From NCBI RefSeq assembly GCF_030817075.1, contig NZ_JAUSYU010000001.1, forward strand, positions 1,550,001 through 1,614,000: a stretch of DNA of 64,000 nt, given 5' to 3'. Source of the DNA: Arthrobacter sp. V1I9 (GTDB lineage: Bacteria > Actinomycetota > Actinomycetes > Actinomycetales > Micrococcaceae). Position numbers and translations under genes: made by a program. This document shows positions 4,610 to 31,997 of this stretch, piece after piece (position 1 is the first letter of the stretch; each line of letters starts with the position of its first letter). Below the pieces are notes generated by a model. That model was not told the DNA's origin, searched no databases, and saw nothing but the letters and a program-made list of their open reading frames with translations.

Positions 4610-4625
4610 TTTATATTGCAAGTAG

Positions 4626-6810: not shown

Positions 6811-6859
6811 CCATTTTCCCTATTGACTTATAAGGCGGCATTTAAGACATTAAGGACAT

Positions 6860-8062
6860 ATGGCAATAAAAGCATTTCACAACCTAGTTAAAATTAGCGC
6901 TGATTCACAAGGAAATGCGCCTAAGACTATCGAGCTACTTCGCACGGGTACTTGGAACACTCCATGGCACGGCGAGTTCGAAATCACTCCTGATGACATC
7001 CAGCAGTTCATCCTCAACGCCGACCAAGGCGTTGGGCTAGTAGAAGCAGATCCGAAGATCCCTCTGAACTACGGTCATGACTCCTGGGACAAAGCAGCCG
7101 GATGGATGCCAAAGCTCTACGCCAGTGAAGACGGCACGGCGCTCCTCGCTGATCCTGAATGGACTCCAGCTGCTGAACAAGCAATCAAAGACGGTGAGTG
7201 GAAATACATCTCTCCTGAGTTCAACCCTCGCTCTTACCCATGGGAAGACCCTGAGCAAGAGTACAACTTTGTCAGCAACGTGCTCACGGGTGCTGCACTC
7301 ACCAACATTCCTCTTTTCAAGAAACTGAAGCCAATCACGGCATCGCGTTTGCCCAACAAGAAAGTGAAGGCGAGTGCCACTGGCGACAGTGATAAAAGTA
7401 AAGGAGAACACATGACGTTAGAAGAAATTCGCGCCAAGCAAGTTGCTGATCTTACGGATGATGAGAAGTCATTCCTAGAAGAGCACAAAGCCGAACTCAC
7501 AGCTGAAGAGCTAACGACGTTCGGTCTGGCAGAGGAAGAGCCTGAAGTACCAGAAACTCCCGAAGAGCCAGAAACACCGGAGGAGCCAGAAACTCCCGAA
7601 GTTCCGGAGCCAACAAAGGTAGAGGCAAGCGCGCTCAAAGGCATTACAGCTGAAGAGCTCGAACAATTACGTGCCGATGCAGCAGCTGGCCGCCAGGCAC
7701 AGCAGGAGTTGGAGAAGACGAAAGCCGAAGGTTTTGCGTCTGCTCGTATCTCAGCCGGCCAGATCAAGAGCGGACAGAAGGCTGACCTAGTCAAGATCCT
7801 TCTCGCCTCACGCGGCGACGAGCGCAAGACCCTGGAGACATTCCTCGAATCTCTTCCAGAGAACAAGCTCGTCACTGGCGGTGAAATCGGGGATGGCGGC
7901 GCAAATGTCGTGGCAGATGCTGCCCAGGTTGTGCATGAGCGAGTCCAGAAAGTACTGGCTGATGCTCGCGCAGCGGGCAAATCAAAGTCATATGCCGACG
8001 CCCGTAAGGAGGTGCTCGACGCCGACGAAACACTAAAAGATCAGCTCAAGGAGGAGCAATAA
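6860..8062 (+). CDS. Prohead protease with fused scaffold (Mu I/Z type)
   Basis: 400 residues. Residues 1-165 resemble Mu gpI-type proteases: a DDIQQFILNA helix, PLNYGHDSWDKAAGWM and WKYISPEF. The C-terminal part is a charged, Glu/Pro-rich linker with three short PETPEEPE-like repeats (about residues 229-250) followed by a helical scaffold-like region. An in-frame second start lies at 7412 with its own strong ribosome site, so the gene very likely makes both a protease-scaffold and a free scaffold, as in Mu I/Z and lambda C/Nu3. It stands just before the decoration and capsid genes, as expected. Confidence 0.85.
   Translation: MAIKAFHNLVKISADSQGNAPKTIELLRTGTWNTPWHGEFEITPDDIQQFILNADQGVGLVEADPKIPLNYGHDSWDKAAGWMPKLYASEDGTALLADPEWTPAAEQAIKDGEWKYISPEFNPRSYPWEDPEQEYNFVSNVLTGAALTNIPLFKKLKPITASRLPNKKVKASATGDSDKSKGEHMTLEEIRAKQVADLTDDEKSFLEEHKAELTAEELTTFGLAEEEPEVPETPEEPETPEEPETPEVPEPTKVEASALKGITAEELEQLRADAAAGRQAQQELEKTKAEGFASARISAGQIKSGQKADLVKILLASRGDERKTLETFLESLPENKLVTGGEIGDGGANVVADAAQVVHERVQKVLADARAAGKSKSYADARKEVLDADETLKDQLKEEQ
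7412..8062 (+). CDS. Nested in-frame scaffold protein start
   Basis: Within the protease gene, AAAGGAG at 7400-7406 stands five bases before an in-frame ATG at 7412 (residue 185 of the full protein). This is a stronger ribosome site than that of the full-length start. It would give a 216-residue product beginning MTLEEIRAKQ, containing only the acidic linker and helical scaffold region. Co-translation of a separate scaffold from inside the protease gene is established for Mu (I/Z) and lambda (C/Nu3). Here the sequence signal is direct and the product is inferred. Confidence 0.7.
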   Translation: MTLEEIRAKQVADLTDDEKSFLEEHKAELTAEELTTFGLAEEEPEVPETPEEPETPEEPETPEVPEPTKVEASALKGITAEELEQLRADAAAGRQAQQELEKTKAEGFASARISAGQIKSGQKADLVKILLASRGDERKTLETFLESLPENKLVTGGEIGDGGANVVADAAQVVHERVQKVLADARAAGKSKSYADARKEVLDADETLKDQLKEEQ

Positions 8063-8063
8063 T

Positions 8064-8435
8064 ATGGCATTCCAACCAGGTGAACGCTACAGCGCTACCG
8101 CAGGTGCAGACCTGACAGGCAAGCAGTATCACATCGTCAAACTAAACGCAGACGGCAAAGTCGTTCTTGCAACAGCAGCTACTGACGCGATTCTCGGTGT
8201 CCTGGACAACGCTCCAGTAGCCGGCCGCACAGCAGATGTTGTTCTGCTCAACGGCGCGGGCTCATTCAAGGTGAAGATCGCAGCTAACACTGCCAAAGAC
8301 GCTTACATCACTACCAACGGCAGCGGTGAGGCAGTAGTGACTTCAACCGCGGGTCACCGCGTGATCGGTCGCTTGGTTCGTGCAGGCTCAGCCGGCGCGA
8401 TCGCCGAATACATCAAACTAAACGAAAAGTTCTAA
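8064..8435 (+). CDS. DUF2190-like head protein (decoration/head fibre)
   Basis: 123 residues, Ala/Gly/Val rich and mostly beta. The opening FQPGERYSATAGADLTGKQY and the DAILGVLDNAP segment fit DUF2190, small proteins encoded just before the major capsid gene in many Mu-like head modules and thought to decorate or stabilise the capsid. The start follows the protease stop by a single base, so translation is probably coupled. No signal peptide or membrane segment is seen. Function is inferred from family and position. Confidence 0.75.
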   Translation: MAFQPGERYSATAGADLTGKQYHIVKLNADGKVVLATAATDAILGVLDNAPVAGRTADVVLLNGAGSFKVKIAANTAKDAYITTNGSGEAVVTSTAGHRVIGRLVRAGSAGAIAEYIKLNEKF

Positions 8436-8452: not shown

Positions 8453-9391
8453 ATGGCCAATCAATCAACCTACGTGGATCAAGCGCTTACCAATGTCGCT
8501 AACGCGTGGTTCAACGATCAAGAAGACTTCATCGCTGAGAAGCTATTCCCAGTGGTGCCAGTCACCAAACCAACGTTCCTCATTCCAGAGTTCGGTAAGG
8601 AAAATCTCAACCTTCCAGCTAACTCTGTGCGTACAGGCCTATCTAAGGCTAAAAGCATCTCGCAGACTCGTTCATACAAGAACGCTCAGCCGCTTGAAGA
8701 GCACGCTCTATCGGGTTACGTCACCAAAGAGGACTACAAACTCACTGACGATCCGTTCAATCCTGAGTCCGACGAGACTGAAAACATCTTGTCTGTTATG
8801 GCCCTCATCGACGAGAAAGCCCTTGCTGACAAGCTAACCGACACAGCCGTCGTCACCAACAACCGCACCCTTACCGGTACAAGCCGTTGGTCTGACTACG
8901 AGAACTCAAATCCATTTGAGGACATCCGTACGGCAGTGACATCAAGCAAATTCATCAAGTACAACACCATGGCTTTGAGCCGCGAGGGTTACCTCTCACT
9001 GATCAGCCACCCAGACATCTTGGATCGCCTCAAATGGGCCCAGGGCGGTGCTGTGAGCCTTGAACAGCTCAAGCAACTGTTTGGTCCGTTCGGCATCAAG
9101 AACATTTACATCGGTCAGGCTCGCGCTAACTTCGGCGAAGAAGGTCTCGACGACGACATCCAGAACATCTGGGGCGACGACGTGCTGTTCGGCTTTGTAA
9201 CCGACAAGCCAAGCCGCAAGAGCGTCAACGGCGGTTACAAGTTCCAGCTTAAAGACTCACGCGAAGTCACGAAGGAATCGTTCAACAACCCATCTCACAC
9301 AGAAATCGTGGTCACTGACTACTACAACTACGAGATGATCATGGCCGACGCTTGGTACCTCTTGAAGGACGCGTTCGCGACGGGAGCTTAG
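8453..9391 (+). CDS. Major capsid protein
   Basis: 312 residues. The position after protease and decoration protein, the length and the composition (few Cys, many polar residues, no repeats) fit a major capsid subunit with an HK97-type fold, in the group of Mu-like/Rhizobium phage capsids. Visible segments include GYVTKEDYKLTDDPF and ENILSVMALIDEKALADKL, probably the spine region, and a C-terminal IVVTDYYNYEMIM. An AAGGAAGG element lies about 12 bases ahead of the start. No obvious N-terminal delta domain is present, consistent with the scaffold being supplied by the upstream gene. Confidence 0.85.
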   Translation: MANQSTYVDQALTNVANAWFNDQEDFIAEKLFPVVPVTKPTFLIPEFGKENLNLPANSVRTGLSKAKSISQTRSYKNAQPLEEHALSGYVTKEDYKLTDDPFNPESDETENILSVMALIDEKALADKLTDTAVVTNNRTLTGTSRWSDYENSNPFEDIRTAVTSSKFIKYNTMALSREGYLSLISHPDILDRLKWAQGGAVSLEQLKQLFGPFGIKNIYIGQARANFGEEGLDDDIQNIWGDDVLFGFVTDKPSRKSVNGGYKFQLKDSREVTKESFNNPSHTEIVVTDYYNYEMIMADAWYLLKDAFATGA

Positions 9392-9395
9392 TCGT

Positions 9396-10132: not shown

Positions 10133-10585
10133 CTATCTACGCTTCGCCATCTTGATTCTGAGTTGTTTGTGCCAAGCTACCTCCAAGTCGTGGATGCCCC
10201 GCAAGACTTCGAATGGAAGCTCACCAGGACTCACACTGTTTGGCTTCCCATGTTCCACAAGTACGTTTAGGCAACTTTCATAGAGCTTGTATGCCTTGTC
10301 TGCGACGTCTGGATTAGCTTTACCACGCAACGCTTTCCGTGCATTTTCGATGTTGTCCGCGTGACCTGACAGTCGTCCCATCTCCAGGTCGTTGCCCAGC
10401 TCATCAAAGTGGTGGTGGAAGCGAAGGGAAGTGAACTTGGTGGCGTTGTCTTGAATTATCAAGCACTGCTCTCGTATGTCTTCGCGATCCAACCGCTGGT
10501 CGGCACGGTTCTCGGATTGGAAGATGCTGACGATCTTCATGATGCCACTGCCCAGCTTGGCGAATAATCCTAGTTCAACTGACAT
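10133..10585 (-). CDS. Uncharacterised protein of the reverse-strand accessory cassette
   Basis: 150 residues, with a good GGGAGG site seven to eight bases before the ATG at 10,585. It is mostly helical and soluble, with a short hydrophobic N-terminus (LGLFAKLGSGIMKIVSIF), many charged residues, and an FHHHFDELGNDLEM segment. Its size and helical pattern loosely resemble the soluble part of the two upstream membrane proteins (10,642-11,271 and 11,314-11,994), so it may be a relative that has lost the membrane anchor. It is the last gene of a three-gene unit running against the late operon, typical for a moron. No known family recognised. Confidence 0.7.
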   Translation of the reverse strand: MSVELGLFAKLGSGIMKIVSIFQSENRADQRLDREDIREQCLIIQDNATKFTSLRFHHHFDELGNDLEMGRLSGHADNIENARKALRGKANPDVADKAYKLYESCLNVLVEHGKPNSVSPGELPFEVLRGIHDLEVAWHKQLRIKMAKRR

Positions 10586-10641
10586 TTCGGCCTCCCGTGC
10601 CCCATCCCGTGAGTATAGCCAAGCGCGTCACGATGGTTTGA

Positions 10642-11271
10642 TCAAGGCCGTTCGGAATCACCGTAGGTTCGGCCTAGTCGATCACCGATTAAATCCAGGA
10701 GAGAATCTTTGGCTTCTCGGAGCTCCTCCTCAGTAGCAGGATCGATCTCTGGAACCTTGATGATGCCCACACCGCTTGCTGCCCTCAGTGTATTAATAAA
10801 CGCCAGCTTCTCATTTTCGAAGTCTCGGATGCTGGCGGCGATGTCTTCCTCTTCCCCGAATGGAATCATCAAGACCAGGCAAGAGTTGAAGAGACCTTGC
10901 CCAGTCTTCATTGCGTCTTCCCGAGCAAACAACTCAAACTTTCGCCACTTTTCTCGGAGGTCAATCAGAGCGTCATGGATCGCCTGCAGGTAATCATTTG
11001 GCTCCAGGGCTCGGTGCTCCGTCTGTTGGCCCTTCACAACCTCTGCCAGATGGGTAGCGGCTTCAAGGTACTCCAGACCCACCGTGCGCATGTCGATCAT
11101 GATGCGCTCTTCTTTGTCCCGCTTTGCCTTTCGGTTATCGCTGGCACGTGTCGAGAGGAACGCTATAACGGCACCGATGAGCAGGAAGACGCCTGCCATG
11201 AGTGGGACGCCCCACCAGGGCGCACCAGTATCGGGCATGTTGATGATGACAGGGGGCGGGGTCGCGAGCAC
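10642..11271 (-). CDS. Membrane-anchored coiled-coil protein, PWWG paralogue 1
   Basis: 209 residues from a GTG at 11,271. A short outside N-terminus ends in GAPWWGVPLMAGVFLLIGAV, the start of a single membrane helix; the basic stretch after it (STRASDNRKAKRDKEER) puts the rest in the cytoplasm. The remaining ~150 residues are helical with charged heptads. The next gene upstream begins with the same plan (GPWWGEAAIAGGFLIIGALI), so the two are paralogues by the PWWG-x5-AG-x-FLIIGA motif. An N-anchored cytosolic helical domain suits a superinfection-exclusion or sensor role; that is inference. Not recognised as a named family. Confidence 0.72.
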   Translation of the reverse strand: MLATPPPVIINMPDTGAPWWGVPLMAGVFLLIGAVIAFLSTRASDNRKAKRDKEERIMIDMRTVGLEYLEAATHLAEVVKGQQTEHRALEPNDYLQAIHDALIDLREKWRKFELFAREDAMKTGQGLFNSCLVLMIPFGEEEDIAASIRDFENEKLAFINTLRAASGVGIIKVPEIDPATEEELREAKDSLLDLIGDRLGRTYGDSERP

Positions 11272-11313
11272 GAAGTGATCTTCTCACGCTCGGCCGTGTA
11301 GCCCACTGCTGGA

Positions 11314-11994
11314 TCAACGGCCCAGAAGGTAGCCGGCGAGAAGTAGGCAGAGGCTACCAACAACCAAAAGGCCAGTGTCGTTCGTGATGTCTTTGAGTGC
11401 TTTGCGTGTTGGGCCATGAGACTTCAACCAGATCACTAGCCTCTTACGCCAAGGCTTCTTTCCTATCTTGGATGCGGGCAGCTTCAAGGTCAGACGGACT
11501 TGGTCCACAACCTGTTGTCGAGTTGCCCAATACTCTTTCGAGTGACCTTCGGAGTCCTCGACGATGTTAGTGGCGAGGATGCATAAGTAGTGCCTCCTGG
11601 CGGCACGGATCAGGGGGTCCGGGGCCACAAACGAGAGTGGCTGAAGGGATTTGGATGCTGCGTTGCGCGCAGTATTAAGCACGGCTCCAGACTCTGACAG
11701 TTTCTCAAGATTTTGGCGGCCAGCCTCGACGGAATCGGGCTTTCTGGCCAGTACCTTTGCGTACTCCTTCTCCGCTTCCCAGTAGGCGTCCGCGTTAGTA
11801 AGAAAGACTGCACCGGCTTCGCGGATCTCGGCATCAAAACGACGGGACAGTTCACGCCGCGACTTCACGGCCTCGACGATCGCCGCGGTGATAAGGCTGA
11901 TCAGGGCACCGATGATGAGGAAGCCTCCGGCAATGGCGGCTTCACCCCACCACGGTCCCTCTTTAGCTGTTAGTAACTCCCACACTCGGTGCAC
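11314..11994 (-). CDS. Membrane-anchored coiled-coil protein, PWWG paralogue 2
   Basis: 226 residues from a GTG at 11,994 behind a GGGAGGG-type site. A PWWG motif leads into a membrane helix (AIAGGFLIIGALISLITA), followed by a charged helical domain (SRRELSRRFDAEIREAG) and, unlike its paralogue, a second hydrophobic helix at the very C-terminus (LLVVGSLCLLLAGYLLG). It is the first gene of the reverse-strand cassette, facing the forward small gene at 12,082 across an AT-rich 87-base gap that should hold divergent promoters. Both paralogues probably sit in the inner membrane of the lysogen. Role unknown; exclusion of other phages is a reasonable hypothesis. Confidence 0.72.
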   Translation of the reverse strand: MHRVWELLTAKEGPWWGEAAIAGGFLIIGALISLITAAIVEAVKSRRELSRRFDAEIREAGAVFLTNADAYWEAEKEYAKVLARKPDSVEAGRQNLEKLSESGAVLNTARNAASKSLQPLSFVAPDPLIRAARRHYLCILATNIVEDSEGHSKEYWATRQQVVDQVRLTLKLPASKIGKKPWRKRLVIWLKSHGPTRKALKDITNDTGLLVVGSLCLLLAGYLLGR

Positions 11995-12081
11995 ACTACC
12001 AGCCCTCCAGCCCTCCCTTTTAAATGGAGCGCGTTGGTGTTTAAATGAAAAATATAGATTACCAATAAGCGGAGAAACTTT

Positions 12082-12153
12082 ATGACTAATACCGATAATG
12101 TAACCCTAGACGTGCAGGACAGCACGATAGGTTCTGGAGATGGCAATGCCTAA
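12082..12153 (+). CDS. 23-residue leader ORF
   Basis: A GGAGA seven bases before an ATG opens a 23-codon frame (MTNTDNVTLDVQDSTIGSGD... ending at TAA 12,151-12,153). It overlaps the start of the following structural gene by eight bases in another frame. It has a better-placed ribosome site than expected by chance and may couple translation of the next gene. The peptide itself has no recognisable features. Confidence 0.4.
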   Translation: MTNTDNVTLDVQDSTIGSGDGNA

Positions 12154-12511
12154 GTTTGCGAACGACTCTATTATGGACGCAGCTTTAGACGTTATTGCAA
12201 CGGGGACTATTCTCACCGTTTGTAGTGCGCAGCCAACGACGCGGACTGAAGCAACCACTACCTACAAGCTAGCTGACGTGGTTATCGACGGCGGCGACTT
12301 CACAAAGGCGAACGGTACTACCAGTGGACGAAAGGTCACTGTCGGACAGCAAGCTGACGTGCCCGTAGATAGCTCAGGAACAGCAACGCACATCGCTGTG
12401 TGCGACGGAACAAACCTCCTCTACGTAACTACATGCACATCCCAAGCACTCACCAGTGGCAATACCGTAACTGTGCCAGCTTGGGCTGTTGAGATTGGTG
12501 ATCCAACCTAA
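12146..12511 (+). CDS. Phage structural protein, unknown (head-tail region)
   Basis: 121 residues from the ATG at 12,146; GGAG at 12,136-12,139 is spaced six bases from it, whereas the ATG at 12,140 would be immediately next to the site. The protein is beta-rich with a hydrophobic N-terminal helix (IMDAALDVIATGTILTVC) and repeated Thr/Val strands, resembling small Ig-like or virion surface proteins found next to head completion genes. It restarts the forward late operon after the reverse cassette. No family recognised; role inferred from position only. Confidence 0.7.
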   Translation: MPKFANDSIMDAALDVIATGTILTVCSAQPTTRTEATTTYKLADVVIDGGDFTKANGTTSGRKVTVGQQADVPVDSSGTATHIAVCDGTNLLYVTTCTSQALTSGNTVTVPAWAVEIGDPT

Positions 12512-12515
12512 GCCC

Positions 12516-12620
12516 ATGAGAGCCAAGGCGTTTCGCAATATTGAAGTTGCCGTCGGATTGGGTCTTTACGTGGGCTTCTTCGTCCTGGCCTGGGGATTCT
12601 TAGATGGCTACGTTCGGTAA
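12516..12620 (+). CDS. 34-residue membrane peptide
   Basis: An ATG four bases after the stop of the preceding gene opens a frame encoding a basic N-terminus (MRAKAFRN), a continuous hydrophobic helix (VAVGLGLYVGFFVLAWGFL) and a short tail, ending at TAA 12,618-12,620. It overlaps the next gene by 17 bases in another frame. There is no clear ribosome site, so translation would depend on coupling. The charge-helix pattern is non-random, which supports a real small membrane protein, perhaps related to the accessory membrane proteins just upstream. Confidence 0.5.
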   Translation: MRAKAFRNIEVAVGLGLYVGFFVLAWGFLDGYVR

Positions 12621-13959
12621 GACGACCAACGGCGCATCAAATACTCTTCATAACGCCAATCGTAAAATCCTGTCGCAGGCCATTCTCTCTGAAGCAGCCC
12701 TTCTGACCTCCATGACGATTCGTGGGCGCACTGGAACGGCGGGTTCGAAGAACTGGAAGGGCGTCATCTATTCGGATGTCGCCGGTGCTCCTAGCGCCTT
12801 GCTGACCACCAGCGTGGAAGGAACAGTCACCGGGACAACCGTGCAGTCCTACACAGCAAACTTTGCTGGCGAGCCATTAGCGGCGGGCACGTACTGGATC
12901 GGATGGATTCACAATGGTGATGGCACAATCGCCGCCCACCCGTATCGCGATAACACGGCGGGCCTAGCCCTATCTAATACGGATAGCTACTCTGATGGCC
13001 CGGCTAACCCCGCAGGAGCAATGGCGGCTCTGGCTGGTCCCATAGATGCCTACGTGACCTATACACCTGCTGCGGGTGGCACGACGCTCGTCGCTTCTGA
13101 TGCTAATCACTCACAGTCAGCCGGCGCGCTTGCGCTGGTGCAGAGTAGTAGCCTGGCGGTCAATAGCTCCACTCACGCACAAGATGCCTTCAGTCCAACT
13201 CTCACGGAGGCCGCTCTCCTCACCGTGGCCAGCGCCTTGCAGTTTCATTCGAGCGCTGCAGCCGATCTAACTCAGGCGTTCACGCTGGCTCCACAGAACT
13301 CATCCCACCTTCACAGCGCACTGACGGCGACGCTGACTCAGCGGCACAGCGTGGAGGTCGCGAGTAGCAATCACGCTCATCAGGTTTCGGTTCTCACTCT
13401 GGCTAGCGCCTCAAGCTTGGTAGTTGCCTCAGCTGCTCATGTCCAGATTGCTGATGCCGCCAACCTAGGCCAGGCGCAACAGCTTGGCGTTGCTGACAGC
13501 TATTTCTCTCATGAAGCTGCCTCGCAGATGCTGGAACAGGAGCACATCCTCACTGTCGCCAACTGCATGCAGGGCATGGTCCTCGGTTCAGTCACGACCG
13601 TTGCCGATACCGCCCTCACTATTGCCAGTGCCCAACACGGACAGATAGCCAGCGCAGTGGAGCTCTCCGGAAGCAGCTCGCTGACCGTCGAAAGCGCGAT
13701 ACATCAGCAGTCAACGACGGCTATCGCTATTGCCCAAGCGCATCAACTCTCTGTTGCGTCGCCCTCGCAGGCAATGACGACTGACATCCTGTTGCTGGCC
13801 TATGCCTCTGTCTTCGGAGTGCCGACAACCATGACGAGTCATTCGAGACGGTCATTACTTATCAATCAATCACAAGCAGGCATTTTAGTGGCTATTGATA
13901 AAGAGGTGCTATTGACCAATCAAGCTAATCCAACGATACTAAGAACAAATAAGCGGTAA
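12604..13959 (+). CDS. Virion protein with eleven tandem 22-residue repeats
   Basis: 451 residues. Residues 1-155 look like a beta-sandwich (GVIYSDVAGAPSALL, GTYWIGWIHNGDG), perhaps a binding or capsid-docking domain. Residues 162-403 consist of exactly eleven 22-residue units of the form L-x-V-x-S-x-x-H-x-Q/H-x-A, ending in a short strand. The regular period and small residues predict a beta-solenoid or trimeric shaft; the recurring His and Gln/His at unit positions 8 and 10 could form ladders or bind metal as HxH motifs do in some phage spikes. A 48-residue tail follows. Repeat proteins of this general style occur as head or tail fibres in actinophages; the exact role is unknown. Confidence 0.75.
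   Translation: MATFGKTTNGASNTLHNANRKILSQAILSEAALLTSMTIRGRTGTAGSKNWKGVIYSDVAGAPSALLTTSVEGTVTGTTVQSYTANFAGEPLAAGTYWIGWIHNGDGTIAAHPYRDNTAGLALSNTDSYSDGPANPAGAMAALAGPIDAYVTYTPAAGGTTLVASDANHSQSAGALALVQSSSLAVNSSTHAQDAFSPTLTEAALLTVASALQFHSSAAADLTQAFTLAPQNSSHLHSALTATLTQRHSVEVASSNHAHQVSVLTLASASSLVVASAAHVQIADAANLGQAQQLGVADSYFSHEAASQMLEQEHILTVANCMQGMVLGSVTTVADTALTIASAQHGQIASAVELSGSSSLTVESAIHQQSTTAIAIAQAHQLSVASPSQAMTTDILLLAYASVFGVPTTMTSHSRRSLLINQSQAGILVAIDKEVLLTNQANPTILRTNKR
13087..13812 (+). repeat. Eleven 22-codon protein repeats (66-bp period)
   Basis: The repeat is clear at protein level (L at unit position 1, V at 3, H at 8, Q/H at 10) and keeps an exact 66-base period for eleven units without indels. 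DNA copies have diverged at synonymous and other sites, so the array is old and not a recent tandem expansion. Confidence 0.85.
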
Positions 13960-26155: not shown

Positions 26156-26485
26156 ATGGCAAAAGAAACGATCACAATAGTTCGTGATGACCTCGACGGT
26201 TCGGAAAACGCAAAGTCGTACAAGTTTGGCTGGGGAGACGACCAGTACGAGATCGATTTGAGTGAAAACAACGCCAAGGAACTTCAAGACTTCCTGGCTA
26301 AGTACATCGACGCTGCTGCGAAGGTAACCAATCGCCTTCCGCGTAGCGAGCGTTCATCCGCTCCTAAGAGCAACAAAGAAGAACTGGCACGCGTCCGCGA
26401 ATGGGCCGCAAAAGAGGGGCTCAAAGTGAATCCTCGCGGCCGTATCAGTGGTGATGTCCTGAAGGCGTACCAAGACGCTCACTAG
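26156..26485 (+). CDS. Lsr2-like nucleoid-associated protein
   Basis: 109 residues. The N-terminal half fits the Lsr2 dimerisation domain (TIVRDDLDGSENAKSYKFGW, YEIDLSENNAKELQDFLAKY). The C-terminal half ends REWAAKEGLKVNPRGRISGD and VLKAYQDAH, the DNA-binding domain with the RGR minor-groove hook. Lsr2 is the actinobacterial counterpart of H-NS and silences AT-richer foreign DNA. A phage-borne copy may keep the prophage quiet or interfere with the host silencer. It is a single gene between two terminators, probably expressed in the lysogen. Confidence 0.92.
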   Translation: MAKETITIVRDDLDGSENAKSYKFGWGDDQYEIDLSENNAKELQDFLAKYIDAAAKVTNRLPRSERSSAPKSNKEELARVREWAAKEGLKVNPRGRISGDVLKAYQDAH

Positions 26486-26495
26486 TTTCACCATG

Positions 26496-26531
26496 AAGAA
26501 GCCCTGTCTCGAACGTGAGGCAGGGCTTCTT
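26496..26531. terminator. Bidirectional terminator between lsr2-like gene and ATPase gene
   Basis: A 15-bp stem with one G-U pair (arms 26,496-26,510 and 26,517-26,531), six-base loop and T-rich flanks lies exactly between the convergent stops at 26,485 and 26,532, so it can serve both strands. Confidence 0.85.
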
Positions 26532-28781
26532 CTATTCGCCGTGGTCTACCTTGCGCCTACCCATATGAGGGTGACGCTTCGTCTCATCAACGCGAGCTCG
26601 ACGCCGAGCGTCGATGTCCTCGTGGACTTTGGCGATAGGCGTACCGTGCTTGATGCCAGATAGATGAACAGCCCTATCGGCGGTGCCCGTGGACGGGAAT
26701 GGCGCCAAGGCGGTGAAGGTTACTGGATCACCAGTTCCTCGCTCGTTGGCTATCCAGGCAATGGCGTCGTACTTCTTGAGCGCGGTGATGTCAGTCTCGG
26801 TGACGTGAGAAGAACCGATGGAGTTGAGCCACATACGAGCCTCTTTAGCCGTGCTTTCAAACAGCACCTTGGTACCGGTGTTGTTGAGGATGGCCGAGCG
26901 CGTGTTCTTGTCGATCTTGTCGCTGTCGTCCATGAACTGCGTCGACGTGGTCAGCGTGAACTTGTGCTTTCGACCGCGAGCCAGGATGTCGTCCAGACCA
27001 ACGTCGATCTTGGTCATCTGCTGCAACTCATCGAGGTAGACGAAGTTGTGCTTATCCGGGGTGAGATTCTGATCTTCAGTCCAAAGGGCTTGGAAAAGAA
27101 GTGTGCCGAGCAGGCCTGCTGTGTCTTCAGGCAGGCCGGCAAGGTTCACCAGGAGGATCTTGTTGCCAAGCAGCACATCCTTGATGTTGAAGCCAGACTG
27201 GGACTGCCCAAGTATGTTGTGAATCTCAGGACGGCTATTCAGTTGCCAGAGGCGGTCATATAGAGGCTGCGACCTCATGCGGCGTTCTTCTTCTTTGAGG
27301 TTCATCCAGTCCTCCATAAAGAACTTGATTTGCCGATCCTTCACAGAGTTCACAACTGACCTAGCCCATGTAATCTCTTCGGGCGTCCGCGGCCGAATCA
27401 GAGGCAGAAGATCTATCAGCGTGGCGTTGCCGTATTCAATCAGCGCGTAGAGGCCGTGGTGAATGAGCTCTCGGGTCCAGACGCCTTTGCTGTCGGGGTA
27501 GAGCTGTTGAAACAGCGCGGACACTTGGTCAACAAGCATGTGCGCGTTGCCCTGATCGAGGGGATTGAAGCCGACAGGGTTATCAACCGAATTGCTCGGG
27601 TTCAATATGACCACTTCATCAAGCCGCTCAAATGGGACGTAGTTGAGTGTCCGGTTGAACAGCGTCTCTGACGAGTTGCTGTTGCTCGCATCTATGATGA
27701 CTACGCCGTAGCCCTTAGCCATGTCCTGAGCTGCAGAGTTAGCGAGCAGTACCGATTTACCAGTTCCAGATTTGCCGCCGATATGAGCATGAAGGATCTC
27801 CCTGACACCGTAACCCTGTGCGATTCGGCGGCCCTTCTGGCTGGTGTGGTTGCTCGTGCCAAGCACTCGACCGATTCGTGCAATTTCTTCCGTTGCGAAG
27901 AACTGCCTGCCCTGCATACGGGGGAGACCTGGAATAGATGGTGTTCCAAGAGGGAAGCCGGCAAGCGCGGCCAACTCCGGGACGTTGAGGAGGGAGGGCA
28001 AACGCCAGGGCGTCGAAGCGTTGTTCACTGCGTCCTGATGAAGGTCGAGGTCACCTATGGGCTTCTTGGCTACGAGCCATGCGTTGTGACTGTTAGCTGT
28101 TTTCATACCCTTGAAGATGCCGTCAGTAAGGAACCTTGCTCTAGCGTCAGTCTTGGCTTGAGCTGCAACACGAGCAATCACCTCATAGCACTCGTAGTCG
28201 AGTTTCTTACGACGATCCTCAACTTCTTCGCGGCTTGCTGTTTGGCCCAGCATCTCGGACAAGATGCCATGCCTAGTAGAAGTAACCGGGTGCTCGGCTG
28301 ATGGCTTTCGCTGAAGGGCAGCCGGCGCAATAACCCATTGCAGAAGAGCAGCTTCCCCGTCCCCAAGGGCGTGCGCCAAGTTGGTCAGTATGTCCTTGGA
28401 GATGATCTCGGGGGCATTGACGTTCAAGGTGCGCGTGCTATCCGACAGGGCGATCTCTTCAACGTGCGTCCAGGCCTTGCGCGGCCGTGAGACGTCATCT
28501 TCAATGACGCTGCCGGGCACCTGATGACGTATCTGGCTTGTGACCTGTTCGGCAAACTGCCAGGGAACGAGCAAGCGGAACTCAATGCTTCCATTGCGTG
28601 CCCACGCTTCAATGACGAGACTCGGGCGTCCCGTGATGAAGGCGAACGTAGCAAGAGGAAGCGTGGTGTGAATGACTCGGAACATCGCTTGCACTGCGTC
28701 TACTGGTAGCTCACCAGGAAACCTCACAATGTAAATCTTGCGCTCTTTGTCGTACTCGGACTGTGGCTTAATCAGTCCCAT
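26532..28781 (-). CDS. HerA/VirD4-VirB4-like DNA-pumping ATPase
   Basis: 749 residues from the ATG at 28,781, behind GGGAGGG. The C-terminal ~420 residues are a FtsK/HerA-superfamily ATPase: Walker A GGKSGTGKS near residue 336, a DASN segment after strand 2, Walker B VYLDE near 582, and the sensor-like TTSTQF shortly after. The 330-residue N-terminal part (VRFPGELPVDAVQAMF) is unlike tailed-phage proteins and recalls accessory domains of conjugation ATPases in actinobacterial elements. No membrane helices are visible; the two tiny membrane proteins upstream may anchor it. No relaxase or other transfer gene is seen nearby. A DNA translocase or exclusion role is possible. Confidence 0.8.
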   Translation of the reverse strand: MGLIKPQSEYDKERKIYIVRFPGELPVDAVQAMFRVIHTTLPLATFAFITGRPSLVIEAWARNGSIEFRLLVPWQFAEQVTSQIRHQVPGSVIEDDVSRPRKAWTHVEEIALSDSTRTLNVNAPEIISKDILTNLAHALGDGEAALLQWVIAPAALQRKPSAEHPVTSTRHGILSEMLGQTASREEVEDRRKKLDYECYEVIARVAAQAKTDARARFLTDGIFKGMKTANSHNAWLVAKKPIGDLDLHQDAVNNASTPWRLPSLLNVPELAALAGFPLGTPSIPGLPRMQGRQFFATEEIARIGRVLGTSNHTSQKGRRIAQGYGVREILHAHIGGKSGTGKSVLLANSAAQDMAKGYGVVIIDASNSNSSETLFNRTLNYVPFERLDEVVILNPSNSVDNPVGFNPLDQGNAHMLVDQVSALFQQLYPDSKGVWTRELIHHGLYALIEYGNATLIDLLPLIRPRTPEEITWARSVVNSVKDRQIKFFMEDWMNLKEEERRMRSQPLYDRLWQLNSRPEIHNILGQSQSGFNIKDVLLGNKILLVNLAGLPEDTAGLLGTLLFQALWTEDQNLTPDKHNFVYLDELQQMTKIDVGLDDILARGRKHKFTLTTSTQFMDDSDKIDKNTRSAILNNTGTKVLFESTAKEARMWLNSIGSSHVTETDITALKKYDAIAWIANERGTGDPVTFTALAPFPSTGTADRAVHLSGIKHGTPIAKVHEDIDARRRARVDETKRHPHMGRRKVDHGE

Positions 28782-28818
28782 CAAACCCTCCCAAGTGGTG
28801 GATTGAATTTGGGTAAAG

Positions 28819-28865
28819 AAAAAGCCACGTCATGCCACTTTTACTTTGACACAACGTGACTTTTT
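28819..28865 (-). terminator. Hairpin between the small membrane genes and the ATPase gene
   Basis: A 12-position stem with one mismatch (AAAAAGCCACGT against ACGTGACTTTTT) and a 23-base loop. A/T runs on both outer sides allow a terminator on either strand. It could reduce readthrough into the ATPase gene. Confidence 0.5.
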
Positions 28866-28872
28866 CGACTAG

Positions 28873-29052
28873 CTAACGACGGCGACCTGAGATTGCCTTT
28901 GCTCCCACAATCAGTAGCCAAAGGATGATCCCTGCTGCCACATAGGGGCTGATGATTGTCCAGATCCCTCCGGCAACGTAAGCCATAGCATCACTGAACG
29001 CCTGGTTCACCTGATCGCCGGTAACGGCTGACACTCTATTGAAAAAGTTCAT
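28873..29052 (-). CDS. 59-residue membrane protein linked to the ATPase
   Basis: I place the start at the ATG at 29,052, because it overlaps the upstream stop (ATGA) and has GGAAG five bases before; a GTG at 29,064 would add four residues. A polar N-terminus of about 22 residues precedes two short or one long hydrophobic segment (MAYVAGGIWTIISPYVAAGI and ILWLLIVGAKAI), ending in SGRRR. Size and charge plan recall small pilin-like or channel subunits of secretion systems. Coupled to the gene upstream and read toward the ATPase gene. Confidence 0.7.
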   Translation of the reverse strand: MNFFNRVSAVTGDQVNQAFSDAMAYVAGGIWTIISPYVAAGIILWLLIVGAKAISGRRR

Positions 29053-29291
29053 CGCTTCCACCACGCCTTCACGTCGTTGCTCGCACCCTTGAACTGCCGG
29101 CTATAGAAGTCGTAGACCGCCCTGTTGAGCTTCGCTTGCTTGCGGTTGCGGCTCACGATGGCCCAAGTCAACACGAATAGGAGGAGGAACATGACGATAA
29201 GGAAAACGAAGACCCCGGTGAGCATCGCCATGCCCTCCGCGTCACTAAGTCCTCCGGATAAAGAGAGAGCTACTGCTGTACTGATGTTCAC
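29049..29291 (-). CDS. 80-residue membrane protein linked to the ATPase
   Basis: A short N-terminus precedes one strong membrane helix (AMLTGVFVFLIVMFLLLFVL) with a basic cytoplasmic side (SRNRKQAKLNR) and a C-terminal amphipathic helix ending NDVKAWWKR. It is the first gene of the reverse-strand operon of two small membrane proteins and an ATPase, and faces the forward gene at 29,419 across a regulatory region. Family not recognised. It could be the anchor or receptor for the ATPase. Confidence 0.7.
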   Translation of the reverse strand: MNISTAVALSLSGGLSDAEGMAMLTGVFVFLIVMFLLLFVLTWAIVSRNRKQAKLNRAVYDFYSRQFKGASNDVKAWWKR

Positions 29292-29336
29292 GGCTTACTC
29301 GCTTCCACTAGCTCCAGTGATAACCTCCGGAGAGGG

Positions 29337-29408
29337 TGACACTTATTGGGGGTGTCAGTGACATGACAGTATCTGGCATGTAAGATAGGTGTCAACTACC
29401 GACACCTA
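29337..29408 (+). promoter_or_regulatory. Promoter with two flanking inverted repeats (candidate operators)
   Basis: GTGACA (29,358-29,363) and TAAGAT (29,381-29,386), 17 bases apart, fit a sigma-70-type promoter reading toward the gene at 29,419. One inverted repeat (TGACAC, nine bases, GTGTCA; 29,337-29,357) lies just upstream of the -35. A perfect second (TAGGTGTC, seven bases, GACACCTA; 29,386-29,408) covers the start region. Both share the half-site GGTGTC/TGTCA, so one repressor probably binds both. Confidence 0.65.
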
Positions 29409-29418
29409 AGGAGTTGAA

Positions 29419-29910
29419 GTGCAAATTTCAGAAGAGCAGCGCAGTATCCGTGACGAGAACATTCAAAAGACGAAGGAGTGGGCCGAAGCCCTGCGGCTCC
29501 TTTTCCAAGGCTCTGGCGTTCTTGGGTCAGCGGAAGATGTCGTCGTACCGGCTGGCATGATCGAGCTCTTTCAAGTTGACGACCAGAAGCAACTGATAAA
29601 GCTGATCTTCCGTGGTCTCGTCAGGCTGCCGCCGGATAGCAAGTACAAGGAGACATTGCGCAACGCCCTGGGCCTAGGCGGAGATGGTCTGAATTTGACT
29701 GAGCGCCGCAACCGGTTCTGTAAGCAAAAAAACGTTAGCTATCGAACGCTGATCCGGCACGAAGAAGTCGGCGCGCAGATACTAGCGGGTTCACTTTTCA
29801 TCAACCACGATGAGCTGCTGGATAAGAAGGAGACGCTCGAACAACGGGTGGAACGTCTTGAGAAGCTGGTTGAAGAGCTACAGGGGCAGGTAGCTACGCT
29901 TTCCAAATGA
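29419..29910 (+). CDS. Uncharacterised, possibly regulatory, protein beside the integrase
   Basis: 163 residues from a GTG with AAGGAG before it. The central part (LTERRNRFCKQKNVSYRTLIRHEEVG) looks like a small helical DNA-binding-style segment seen in actinobacterial proteins that read N-S-x-R-T-x-x-R-x-E. The C-terminus is a short coiled coil (ETLEQRVERLEKLVEELQGQ) suited to dimerisation. It is controlled by a promoter with paired inverted repeats, so it may be an autoregulated phage regulator. Its end overlaps the integrase end by 17 bases on the other strand. Function is not established by sequence. Confidence 0.6.
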   Translation: MQISEEQRSIRDENIQKTKEWAEALRLLFQGSGVLGSAEDVVVPAGMIELFQVDDQKQLIKLIFRGLVRLPPDSKYKETLRNALGLGGDGLNLTERRNRFCKQKNVSYRTLIRHEEVGAQILAGSLFINHDELLDKKETLEQRVERLEKLVEELQGQVATLSK

Positions 29911-31345
29911 TCTCGACGCGGTCGGGATTGAAAATCCACTGCTTATATTTGGCCTTCCCGTCACCCGGCTGCTTCGGGTAAATGAGCACCTTCTCGATGA
30001 GAGCGTCGACCAGCTGACGTTTCCACATGAGGTCTGACTTCTCCCATGCTTCTCGCACTGTCTGGCCGGCCGGGATATTGGCGATGGCGCGCTTGCTTGT
30101 CTGTCGCTCTAGCTCGAGTCCTAGCGTCTCTAAACGTGCTTGTGCGCTAGCTTTGGCAGTCTTGTACTCGCTGAAGTCCATGTCGCCGGTTGAATAGAGC
30201 GCCAGAATTTCCTGCAAGCGTTGCGTTTGAAGCTCGTGGTCACGCATAAGCTGCTTCAACGCAGGCGTCGCTGATTCGTCCCCTGCCAGCAGCTCGCTCA
30301 GTTCGGGCGTATCCAGCCGATACATGATGCAGTCGATGACCAGATCCTCTACTGGGTCCTTCTTACGCTTCACCTTGCCGCAGCCAACCTCCTGTCCGCG
30401 GTGGTCTTTCTTCCGACAGTTGAAGGCCGGGGAGTAGCTGCCGTCTCGTTTCTGGGCATTGATGATGCTCATCTTGTTTCCACAGACACCGCAGAAGATG
30501 AAGCCGGTAAGCAGGTGCTTTCGTGCGTAGCTTCGTTTGCCGAATACAGCCTGACCCCTCTTGATGGCGAGCTGAAGGTCTTCCCATATCTCATGGCTCA
30601 GTAGGGGAGTCCAAGCGGCCTTGTATTCCTGACCGTTGTGCTGACGGATGCCGTAATGCCGCTTCAACTTGGCGACATTGCTGACGTTGATCGCCGCCCA
30701 CTTATCGCCTTTGGCGGTGGGGATACCTCGCTCATTCAAGTCCATTGCGATGCTCCGCCACGAGTCCCCGTTTATGAAGCGTTGAACGATCTCCTTGACC
30801 ACAGGTGCTTCGTCTTCATTGAGCGTCATGCCGTCCTGGTTCCAGCCATATGCTCTATTGCCACCCGACGGTAGTCCAGCCCGGGCGCTCTGGAGCTTCT
30901 TGGCTTGCAGCTGCTCAATGGAGTGCTCGACGTGGTAACTGGCTACGGCACCCAGTTGGCGTGCGATAAGTCTTCCGGTTGGAGTGGTGAAATCGATAGG
31001 GCCAGAGCGCACGGTATATGTAGGTATGTTCTCAGAGACTGCTCCGTACTCTTCTAGTTCTCCCATTGAGCGATGGAGACGATCACCGTGCCACACGACG
31101 ACTGCATCTATTTCACGGTTGCGCATCGATTTTAGAAGGGCCTGATATCCCGGCCGGTGTTTGCCGCTATAGGCGCTAATGTCATTGTCTTCGTACGTTG
31201 CCGTCACTTCTCCGCCAAGTTGCTGAACAAGCTTCAGGCAGTCTTCAATCTGGCGAGCAACGCCCAAACCGGCACCGACCCGGTCGCGGCTGATTCTGGC
31301 GTAGATGGCAATTCGTTGGCTATGCATATATTCAGTTCCGCGCAT
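29894..31345 (-). CDS. Large serine integrase
   Basis: 483 residues from the ATG at 31,345, which has GGAGGG about ten bases before; a TTG at 31,375 and an ATG at 31,327 are alternatives. The N-terminal resolvase domain has the catalytic Ser in IYARISRDR, then DNDISAYSGKHRPGYQALL and VVVWHGDRLHRS. A recombinase domain follows (about residues 150-260), then a zinc ribbon (FCGVCGNKM, with later Cys in FNC and VGCGK) and a coiled coil. Such enzymes insert phage DNA at a unique attB using short non-identical sites. It lies at the very right end, reading inward, next to the junction with comM. Confidence 0.95.
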   Translation of the reverse strand: MRGTEYMHSQRIAIYARISRDRVGAGLGVARQIEDCLKLVQQLGGEVTATYEDNDISAYSGKHRPGYQALLKSMRNREIDAVVVWHGDRLHRSMGELEEYGAVSENIPTYTVRSGPIDFTTPTGRLIARQLGAVASYHVEHSIEQLQAKKLQSARAGLPSGGNRAYGWNQDGMTLNEDEAPVVKEIVQRFINGDSWRSIAMDLNERGIPTAKGDKWAAINVSNVAKLKRHYGIRQHNGQEYKAAWTPLLSHEIWEDLQLAIKRGQAVFGKRSYARKHLLTGFIFCGVCGNKMSIINAQKRDGSYSPAFNCRKKDHRGQEVGCGKVKRKKDPVEDLVIDCIMYRLDTPELSELLAGDESATPALKQLMRDHELQTQRLQEILALYSTGDMDFSEYKTAKASAQARLETLGLELERQTSKRAIANIPAGQTVREAWEKSDLMWKRQLVDALIEKVLIYPKQPGDGKAKYKQWIFNPDRVEIIWKA

Positions 31346-31349
31346 GATT

Positions 31350-31410
31350 ATGAGCCCTCCGGGGTATGCCGTCAATACTTTTGACGAGGCGCCGGAGTAT
31401 GAGCGCCGCG
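31350..31410. other. Prophage-host junction (attR) inside comM
   Basis: Host ComM sequence (DEAPEYERRVLDALRQPLE) resumes at about 31,383, and everything to the left is phage. The crossover is within a few bases of TTTGACGAGG (31,380-31,389), because the family consensus before DEAPE is LFL, while here the frame reads VNTF from phage DNA. Exact core bases cannot be fixed without attL or an empty site. Confidence 0.75.
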
Positions 31411-31997
31411 TGCTGGATGCGCTGCGCCAACCGCTGGAGAGCGGCGAGCTGGTGATCCACCGCTCCGCGGGGACCGCTGCCTATCCGGCCCGGTTCCAGC
31501 TTGTCCTGGCAGCCAACCCCTGCCCGTGCGGCAAGGCGTCCGGCAAAGGGCTGGACTGTACCTGCACGCCAGTGATGCGCAGGCGCTATCTGGCGAGGAT
31601 GTCCGGGCCGTTGCTGGACCGGGTGGACATCCAGCTTCAGGTGGAGAGGGTGTCACTCGCCGAGTTTGGCCAGGCAGGTGCGGAAGAGGATACCGCTTCA
31701 ATTGCCGCCCGCGTCCGGAATGCCCGCGGGCGGCAGCTTGAGCGGTTGGCACCCTTTGGCCTGGAAACGAACTCGCAGGTGCCGGGGCGTGTGCTGCGCG
31801 GAGAGCTGCGGCTTCCGCCGGCCGCCACCCGCATCCTGGACCATTCACTGGAGCGTGGTGTCCTTACTGCCCGTGGCTACGACCGGGTACTGCGTCTGGC
31901 CTGGACCCTGGCGGACCTGGGTCACCGGGAGAGACCAGACGTAAACGACATTGGCCAGGCCCTGGGTTTGCGGCAGGCAGCGGCGGTGGCCGCATGA
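31380..31997 (+). pseudogene. comM: comM (YifB, Mg-chelatase-like AAA+ ATPase), 3' fragment
   Basis: The last ~205 residues of a ComM/YifB protein (full length about 510). Visible are the Walker B-like DEAPEY, the QPLESGELVIHR and LVLAANPCPCGK motifs, the CTCTP cysteines, and the C-terminal helical domain. The N-terminal lon-like and Walker A regions would be beyond the left end of the prophage, so the gene is split by the insertion. ComM is a hexameric helicase that promotes branch migration during natural transformation. A phage-derived frame precedes the fragment but gives no ATPase. It overlaps dprA by four bases (ATGA). Precise excision would restore it. Confidence 0.92.

What the first reader, a model, noticed from the sequence alone, without database searches (positions are those of the whole stretch)
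26532..29291. Conjugation-type ATPase operon inside a tailed prophage
A reverse-strand operon encodes two tiny membrane proteins (80 and 59 residues, coupled by ATGA) and a 749-residue HerA/VirD4-like ATPase with a large unknown N-terminal domain. Tailed phages do not normally carry such ATPases, and no relaxase, VirB or TraA-like gene is present. The unit lies between the lsr2-like gene and the integrase, where lysogenic-conversion genes are often found, so it may be a stand-alone DNA translocase, a superinfection-exclusion machine or a remnant of an ICE. It is my best candidate for an undescribed system in this window.
Basis: partly seen in the sequence, partly recalled or inferred. Interest (0 to 1): 0.75.

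Follow-up and report, generated by a model that had tools for sequence, protein, structure and literature searches.

The report
Prophage with split conjugation coupling pump
A virus dormant in a soil bacterium carries the DNA-pump part of a conjugation machine, with its membrane anchors as separate tiny proteins and a DNA-nicking-type partner at the virus's other end, so it may be able to move by conjugation as well as by infection.

Summary
The operon (80-aa and 59-aa membrane proteins, 749-aa ATPase) lies in a ~60.7-kb Arthrobacter-group prophage that splits a comM/yifB-type gene. The 'unknown' N-terminal domain is not unknown: the ATPase family aligns end to end with the VirD4-type coupling protein of an actinobacterial T4SS locus (hhalign E 1.6e-83), far better than with that locus's VirB4 (1.5e-8). 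P0001 lacks the N-terminal membrane helix; small membrane ORFs lie just upstream in 26 of 32 family loci (controls 14 of 247), suggesting a split coupling protein. 'No relaxase' is wrong for the whole prophage: a Replic_Relax gene (PF13814, filed as MobC relaxase in print) begins 16.4 kb left of the window, nearer to the operon once the prophage is circular. The pair recurs in other phages and in integrated elements without recognisable virion genes, and is under purifying selection. No VirB4 was found in the genome. Best reading: an IME-type mobilization module in a temperate tailed phage, probably using a helper's T4SS; that function is inferred, not shown. Bacillus tyroviruses are a printed precedent. 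New variant of a known kind.

The parts
29049..29291 (-). P0003, 80 aa: membrane helix (about residues 28-46) followed by a charged tail; proposed membrane anchor of the coupling protein
   Evidence: similar small proteins upstream of related ATPases
28873..29052 (-). P0002, 59 aa: one strong hydrophobic segment and a basic end (ATGA overlap with P0003); proposed second membrane partner
   Evidence: counterparts; a 144-aa ORF in Arthrobacter sp. Hiyo8 has a P0002-like end behind another membrane segment
26532..28781 (-). P0001, 749 aa: VirD4-type coupling-protein ATPase without membrane helix; N-domain about 1-290, nucleotide-binding domain about 295-700 with all-helical insert about 413-524; Walker A GGKSGTGKS, Walker B DE (D584 E585)
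29292..29418 (.). divergent intergenic region: palindrome TAGGTGTC-N7-GACACCTA (29386-29408) overlapping a promoter-like TTGACA-16-GATACT that reads towards the operon (29395-29368 -), and another promoter-like site towards P0005
   Evidence: 2 promoter-like sites found in 26400-30000 against 1.7 expected, so weak
29419..29910 (+). P0005, 163 aa: divergent protein with a C-terminal coiled-coil-like part, no Pfam family over cut-off; BLAST-similar gene at this place in several related elements (L056, L058, L060, L063, L073); proposed regulator or accessory DNA-binding protein (inference)
29894..31375 (-). large serine integrase of the prophage
26156..26485 (+). Lsr2-like gene, convergent with the ATPase
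   Evidence: same neighbour in several related phages
31305..31997 (+). 3' piece of the interrupted comM/yifB-type gene (Mg_chelatase + Mg_chelatase_C), i.e. the right attachment side; the 5' piece is at G000:C1:1519622-1520680

Best explanation
The operon encodes a split type IV coupling protein: a soluble VirD4-type ATPase (P0001) and, as separate small proteins, its membrane anchors (P0003, P0002). With a Replic_Relax/MobC-type protein encoded in the same prophage (G000:C1:1533569-1534282, 42 kb away in the prophage, about 15.5 kb away across attP in the excised circle) it forms the DNA-processing and coupling half of a conjugation system, as in integrative and mobilizable elements (IMEs), carried by a tailed temperate phage. 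Proposed working: the serine integrase excises the prophage from the comM-type gene; the Replic_Relax protein binds a site on the circle through its winged helix and nicks it; the ATPase hexamer, held at the membrane by the small proteins, receives that complex and feeds the DNA into the channel of a co-resident conjugative element. Shown by computation: family identities, conserved gene set, full-length match to a T4SS coupling protein, conserved residues, purifying selection. Inferred: hexamer, membrane anchoring, nicking, an oriT, use of a helper channel, and that transfer happens at all.
For: Full-length profile match of the ATPase family to the VirD4-type protein of a T4SS locus in Lentzea, N-domain included (E 1.6e-83, 685 columns), against 1.5e-8 over a shorter stretch for that locus's VirB4. 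That locus (L179) holds PrgI, VirB4, VirD4 and an NlpC/SLT hydrolase with the Replic_Relax gene next to VirD4. By sequence profile the best solved relatives are coupling proteins, DotL 6.6e-14 and TrwB 2.3e-12. The Lentzea VirD4 has its membrane helix (192-210) just before the shared N-domain; 25 of 27 family ATPases have none in their first 80 residues, and small membrane ORFs lie within 700 bp upstream in 26 of 32 loci (two or more in 16 of 32) against 14 of 247 and 0 of 247 other large ORFs. Replic_Relax was found in 10 of 12 phage or phage-like records chosen for the ATPase, and in 8 of the 9 of these with a virion-gene match; the ATPase in 7 of 11 viral contigs chosen for Replic_Relax. 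Viral contig G217 shows the order Replic_Relax - integrase - ATPase - Lsr2-like - tail - head on one molecule. ATPase and Replic_Relax distances correlate (31 pairs r 0.87; 11 phage or phage-like pairs r 0.70). Purifying selection. In print: PF13814 = MobC relaxase, and IMEs with VirD4 + MobC + serine integrase (PMC5357655, passages); mobilizable plasmids with their own VirD4 also carry MobC (PMC5704250, passages); a two-protein coupling protein with its membrane part encoded just upstream in pIP501 (PMC4981023, passages).
Confidence: 0.5

Rival explanations
1. The pair works inside the cell for the phage's own DNA: the Replic_Relax protein nicks or marks the circular phage DNA to start replication or recombination, and the membrane-held ATPase moves or segregates that DNA within the cell (for example maintenance as an episome). 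No cell-to-cell transfer.
For: Own Replic_Relax also matches phrog_2190 'replication initiation protein' (5.2e-10) and phrog_9381 'replication initiation by nicking' (3.6e-9) and lies near an ERF single-strand annealing gene; authors of Bacillus phage papers read Replic_Relax genes, beside FtsK- or T4SS-type genes in two of the three, as plasmid replication or maintenance (PMC9658697, PMC7685451, PMC9703825, passages); no VirB4 in the genome.
Against: The prophage is integrated by a serine integrase; membrane partners and the coupling-protein N-domain are kept; the same set recurs in 17 other integrated-element loci in whose 19-22 kb no ORF matches a window virion protein (9 Arthrobacter and 8 Streptomyces-type loci; other virion types were not searched for), and in a T4SS locus.
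Confidence: 0.25
2. A lysogenic-conversion device: superinfection exclusion or anti-phage/anti-plasmid defence built on a HerA/VirD4-like ATPase at the membrane.
For: Position between lsr2 and integrase; PADLOC mad8 (MADS) match of the ATPase part, E 1.2e-19; structural likeness to DndH-C and defence HerA proteins; the same prophage carries a Pycsar-type defence set.
Against: The mad8 match is of like strength for two integrated-element ATPases (L009 4.2e-20, L010 3.8e-14), so it marks the superfamily; no HerA-type effector partner lies in the operon; the best full-length relative is a coupling protein.
Confidence: 0.15
3. A decaying piece of an ICE captured by the phage, with no present function.
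For: Short Replic_Relax ORF in Hiyo8, transposase-like ORFs beside the ATPase in G108 (named by eye), one stop in the ATPase of viral contig G214, no T4SS genes.
Against: dN/dS 0.03-0.06 for the ATPase and 0.11 for Replic_Relax; same place in several diverged phages; conserved Walker residues and Replic_Relax residues.
Confidence: 0.05

Closest known systems
VirD4-type coupling proteins of actinobacterial T4SS loci (here: Lentzea aerocolonigenes, L178/L179)
   Same: Full-length profile match including the N-domain; Replic_Relax gene next to it
   Different: There the membrane helix is fused to the protein and VirB4 (both loci) and PrgI (tested in L179) are present; here the helices are on separate small proteins and no VirB4 was found
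Streptococcal IME_Class_8 (VirD4 + Rel_PF13814/MobC + serine integrase; Coluzzi et al. 2017, PMC5357655, passages)
   Same: Same combination of coupling protein, PF13814 relaxase and serine integrase, no T4SS
   Different: Here the element is a tailed phage with head and tail genes; coupling protein split; the two genes lie towards opposite ends of the integrated form
Bacillus tyroviruses (PMC9703825, passages)
   Different: 160-170 kb phages, genes adjacent and near a ParM gene, read by the authors as plasmid-like and supporting a plasmid prophage life; no close sequence match to P0001 or to the AL12-prophage Replic_Relax in the phage collection
pIP501 TraI/TraJ two-protein coupling protein (PMC4981023, passages)
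   Same: Membrane-associated partner encoded immediately upstream of a VirD4-like ATPase and thought to recruit it
   Different: Part of a complete T4SS plasmid; one partner, not two; no sequence link tested
TraB system of Streptomyces (TraB in PMC5704250, passages; the small Spd proteins are recalled)
   Same: DNA pump with small membrane proteins in overlapping genes, actinobacterial
   Different: TraB is FtsK-like; P0001 has no FtsK_SpoIIIE match

Membership tests
Type IV coupling protein (VirD4/TraD) | RecA-like nucleotide-binding domain with Walker A and B | tested here: met
Type IV coupling protein (VirD4/TraD) | All-alpha domain inserted in the nucleotide-binding domain | tested here: met
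   helices 413-524 between strands 390-393 and 542-546; within the range of the TrwB alignment
Type IV coupling protein (VirD4/TraD) | Closer to VirD4 than to VirB4 of one T4SS | tested here: met
   by sequence profile: hhalign 1.6e-83 over query columns 10-706 against 1.5e-8 over 195-642. Against it: the fold rankings put VirB4 first, and P0001's own Pfam scores for coupling-protein families are at or just below cut-off
Type IV coupling protein (VirD4/TraD) | N-terminal transmembrane domain (present in most, not all; PMC7431656, start of abstract) | tested here: not met
   none in P0001; small separate membrane proteins upstream may replace it. Because the trait is not universal, membership is kept
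MobC (MOBC) relaxase | PF13814 match, the family filed as MobC in PMC5357655 | tested here: met
   own protein 53.0 bits against cut-off 25.3
MobC (MOBC) relaxase | PD-(D/E)XK-type nuclease domain (PMC12857230, passages) | tested here: inconclusive
   E126, D141, E160, D162 and Y178 conserved in all or nearly all rows and alpha-beta-beta-beta-alpha-beta order, but the fold search was filled by the winged helix; PaqCI/FokI only at E 0.037
MobC (MOBC) relaxase | Nicks its oriT and is needed for transfer | not testable with these tools
   no oriT identified
Integrative and mobilizable element (IME) | Integrase plus relaxase, with or without coupling protein, no mating-pair genes | tested here: met
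   integrase and Replic_Relax; of mating-pair genes only VirB4 was searched for in the whole genome
Integrative and mobilizable element (IME) | Not a phage (no virion genes) | tested here: not met
   portal, terminase, protease, tape measure present; hence a phage carrying an IME-type module, not an IME
Integrative and mobilizable element (IME) | Mobilized in trans by a conjugative element | not testable with these tools
   needs mating assays
AICE / TraB single-protein DNA transfer | FtsK/SpoIIIE-type translocase | tested here: not met
   no PF01580 match for P0001 at E 0.1
HerA-type defence (SIR2-HerA, DUF4297-HerA) or MADS | Dedicated effector or the other system genes beside the ATPase | tested here: not met
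   operon neighbours are two small membrane proteins, P0005, Lsr2 and integrase; only noise-level PADLOC matches for P0002, P0003, P0005 (E 0.0033 or worse). The other MADS genes were not searched for across the whole prophage

The most novel reading that the evidence does not exclude
A lineage of actinobacterial tailed temperate phages spreads by two routes: as virions, and as excised circles moved between cells by a phage-encoded split coupling protein and MobC-type relaxase; since integration at attP puts the two genes towards opposite ends of the prophage, excision brings the module back together. In the boldest form the small membrane proteins and the ATPase suffice for DNA export without a classical T4SS, because the set recurs in genomes without a recognisable VirB4.
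Probability: 0.3. Interest if true: 0.85.

Novelty: new variant of a known kind. Interest (0 to 1): 0.55.

Why it matters
Phages and conjugative elements are mostly treated as separate vehicles of gene transfer. A temperate phage group that keeps a coupling-protein and relaxase-type pair under purifying selection, around attP, gives a directly testable case of a 'mobilizable phage'. The split coupling protein (soluble ATPase plus tiny anchors) would also be a handy minimal system for asking what the membrane part of a coupling protein does.

Tried and rejected
MADS membership: the PADLOC mad8 hit was dropped because integrated-element ATPases score alike. TraB/AICE: dropped, no FtsK domain. 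Full ICE left of the window: dropped, no VirB4 match in the genome although the same model finds the Lentzea VirB4 at 3.6e-35. Idea that the ATPase is VirB4-like, raised by the fold rankings: put second. A promoter/operator reading of 29292-29418 is kept only as a hint.

Led nowhere: genome-contig scan with P0001 alone (20 stretches matched, 0 relatives); plasmid collection (6 distant records, none covering 80%); sequence search of solved structures with Replic_Relax (nothing better than E 0.15); fold search of the Replic_Relax nuclease part; an intein model check of the G108 insert (Pfam none; NCBIfam only a weak replicative-helicase hit, E 0.01). Paper searches listed no paper that I recognised as describing this module in actinobacterial phages; only passages of some listed papers were read, and most subscription papers are not in that library.

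Rows chosen or dropped before counts. Second fetches of one prophage were left out (L007 and L058 for L066, L045 for L063, L048 for L060, L046 for L073, L051 for L100), L053 was left out for its insertion, and L060 counts as a miss because its 144-aa membrane ORF exceeds the size limit. The 32 loci are related, so the Fisher values are not strict probabilities. In '10 of 12' the records are G000, G188, G189, G190, G191, G192, G193, G194, G196, G203, G108, G208; misses are G188 (16.6-kb fragment) and G203 (= G129). Virion-gene matches were seen for nine of them (G000, G108, G188, G189, G190, G191, G192, G194, G208), not for G193, G196 and G203. In '7 of 11' the misses are G210, G211, G213, G215; G190 was already known from the ATPase search. 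One search used 27 element pairs plus 4 viral pairs; L143 (short Replic_Relax ORF), L163, L167, G108, G208 and contigs without an ATPase were left out. A4 (27 rows) leaves out L009 and L044, whose ATPases begin with a longer, hydrophobic N-terminus.
Full report
WHERE IT IS. The window is G000:C1:1550001-1614000 of a 4.05-Mb single-contig genome. Its same-genus relatives include genomes whose contigs have the lengths of Arthrobacter sp. EpRS71, Hiyo8, AL12 and A. terricola records, so the host is an Arthrobacter in that sense (inference from contig lengths). Phage DNA (GC about 0.54) runs to about 31.4 kb in the window and leftwards to about G000:1520.7 kb. Both ends lie inside one gene: the left piece (1519622-1520680) carries ChlI and the first part of Mg_chelatase, the right piece (window 31305-31997) the rest and Mg_chelatase_C, followed by a DprA-type gene. 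The prophage is therefore about 60.7 kb and splits a comM/yifB-type gene (that name is recalled). Portal, terminase, head protease and tape measure make it a tailed phage; its terminase is at best 41% identical to one in the phage collection (Bifidobacterium phage BlindBasel1).

WHICH CONJUGATION PROTEIN IT IS. A Lentzea genome that carries a relative of the operon also has two loci with VirB4 and VirD4-type genes; in one of them (L179) PrgI and an NlpC/SLT hydrolase were confirmed too, and both have a Replic_Relax gene beside VirD4. The P0001 family aligns with that VirD4 over 685 columns, N-domain included (E 1.6e-83), and with the VirB4 only from about residue 199 on (1.5e-8); by plain BLAST P0001 scores 130 bits against VirD4 and 31 against VirB4. 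So the 'unknown' N-domain is the N-domain of this class of coupling proteins. The Lentzea VirD4 has a membrane helix at 192-210, followed by a basic stretch and then the shared N-domain; 25 of 27 family ATPases have no helix in their first 80 residues (row starts were set to the start codon nearest the match, and L009 and L044, with longer hydrophobic N-termini, are not in that set). P0003 is a membrane helix followed by a basic stretch. I read P0003 and P0002 as the anchor, split off; that L009 has both an own membrane segment and small membrane ORFs upstream speaks against the simplest form of this. A printed precedent is pIP501, where the membrane-associated TraI, encoded just upstream, presumably recruits the VirD4-like TraJ (PMC4981023, passages).

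IT RECURS. Small membrane ORFs (40-110 aa) lie within 700 bp upstream of the ATPase in 26 of 32 loci, two or more in 16 of 32; for other ORFs of 250 aa or more in the same loci the numbers are 14 of 247 and 0 of 247. In the genus, 25 of 150 genomes match phrog_5156 at E 1e-3, 15 of them at 1.1e-24 or better. By their neighbourhoods I class six of these 15 as prophage-like (G000, G060, G108, G129, G167, G169; for G129 no virion-gene match was seen) and nine as integrated elements (L008-L010, L044, L047, L049-L052): seven of these nine have a large recombinase that BLASTs to the window's serine integrase within the stretch read, and none has an ORF that matches a window virion protein. A Replic_Relax-type gene follows the ATPase in eight of the nine (aligned; two confirmed by Pfam); in L051 none was aligned. 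The phage collection (50,697 records) has no full-length relative of P0001 (20 records, none covering 80%).

THE GENES MEET ON THE CIRCLE. In the prophage the two genes are 42 kb apart. Viral contig G217 shows such a phage opened elsewhere: Replic_Relax (4202-4996), serine integrase (6825-8234), an ORF at P0005's place (8523-9392, no BLAST match to P0005), ATPase (10671-12911), Lsr2-like gene (12951-13379), then tail and head genes. So on the circular form the module surrounds the integrase and presumably attP; for the window's phage the gap across attP is about 12.9 + 2.6 kb (calculated).

SELECTION. Against the G108 prophage the ATPase has dN/dS 0.061 before and 0.031 after that copy's insert; Replic_Relax against contig G209 0.114; Lsr2 against G108 0.224 (the ATPase against G209 gives 0.077, but dS is saturated). 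Walker residues are invariant. This speaks for a working ATPase.

HOW IT MAY WORK, AND DOUBTS. The most economical reading is an IME-type mobilization module: Replic_Relax nicks the excised circle, the anchored ATPase hands it to a T4SS. What speaks against it is the lack of a T4SS: no VirB4 in the own genome and, in 14 module-bearing Arthrobacter genomes, VirB4-model matches outside the module itself in two only, both weak (partial scoring). Mobilizable elements without a resident helper are common in print (24% of E. coli genomes in PMC11389934, passages), so this does not refute it. Rival readings are intracellular use in replication or segregation (0.25), conversion or defence (0.15) and remnant (0.05).

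NOVELTY. The kind is known: coupling protein plus PF13814 in IMEs, and T4SS- or FtsK-type genes with replication-relaxation proteins in Bacillus phages (tyroviruses gp17/gp18, PMC9703825; phage Pony, PMC3853050; PMC9658697; all passages). New here, as far as searches show, are the actinobacterial phage lineage, the split coupling protein, the link to the actinobacterial T4SS coupling protein and the arrangement around the integrase.

One search was added to test by BLAST what had been judged by eye (virion genes, P0005 and Lsr2 counterparts); the P0005 label in G217 was withdrawn and the phage counts were narrowed.

Noticed in passing
G000:C1:1546663-1548672 (L054 16663-18672 -), left of the window in the same prophage: Pycsar-type defence set: two PycC cyclase-like genes (PADLOC E 3.7e-80 and 2.4e-81) and a PycTM-like membrane effector (2.6e-34).
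   Followed up: partly
L053 9359-12616 - (G108 ATPase, 1085 aa): A 338-aa in-frame insert with intein-like ends (starts with Cys, ends His-Asn before Thr) sits inside the Walker A motif of the closest ATPase relative; Pfam and NCBIfam did not confirm an intein.
   Followed up: partly
window 31305-31997 and G000:C1:1519622-1520680: The prophage splits a comM/yifB-type Mg-chelatase gene next to a dprA-type gene; two other module elements (L046, L053) have the integrase beside a piece that looks alike by eye.
   Followed up: partly
L072 15562-18730 - and L075 12871-16042 -: Two Streptomyces elements hold a second, distant ATPase + Replic_Relax pair near the first.
   Followed up: no
L060 9460-9894 (Arthrobacter sp. 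Hiyo8): A 144-aa ORF upstream of the ATPase has two membrane segments, the second part matching P0002 (38% over 53 residues), as if the two small proteins were fused.
   Followed up: no
window 10133-11994 -: Three reverse-strand ORFs among the late genes have no PADLOC match; two of them (10642-11994) were also run against Pfam without a match; the one at 10642-11271 has a 46% relative in the EpRS71 prophage (L013 17059-17700). Possible cargo.
   Followed up: partly
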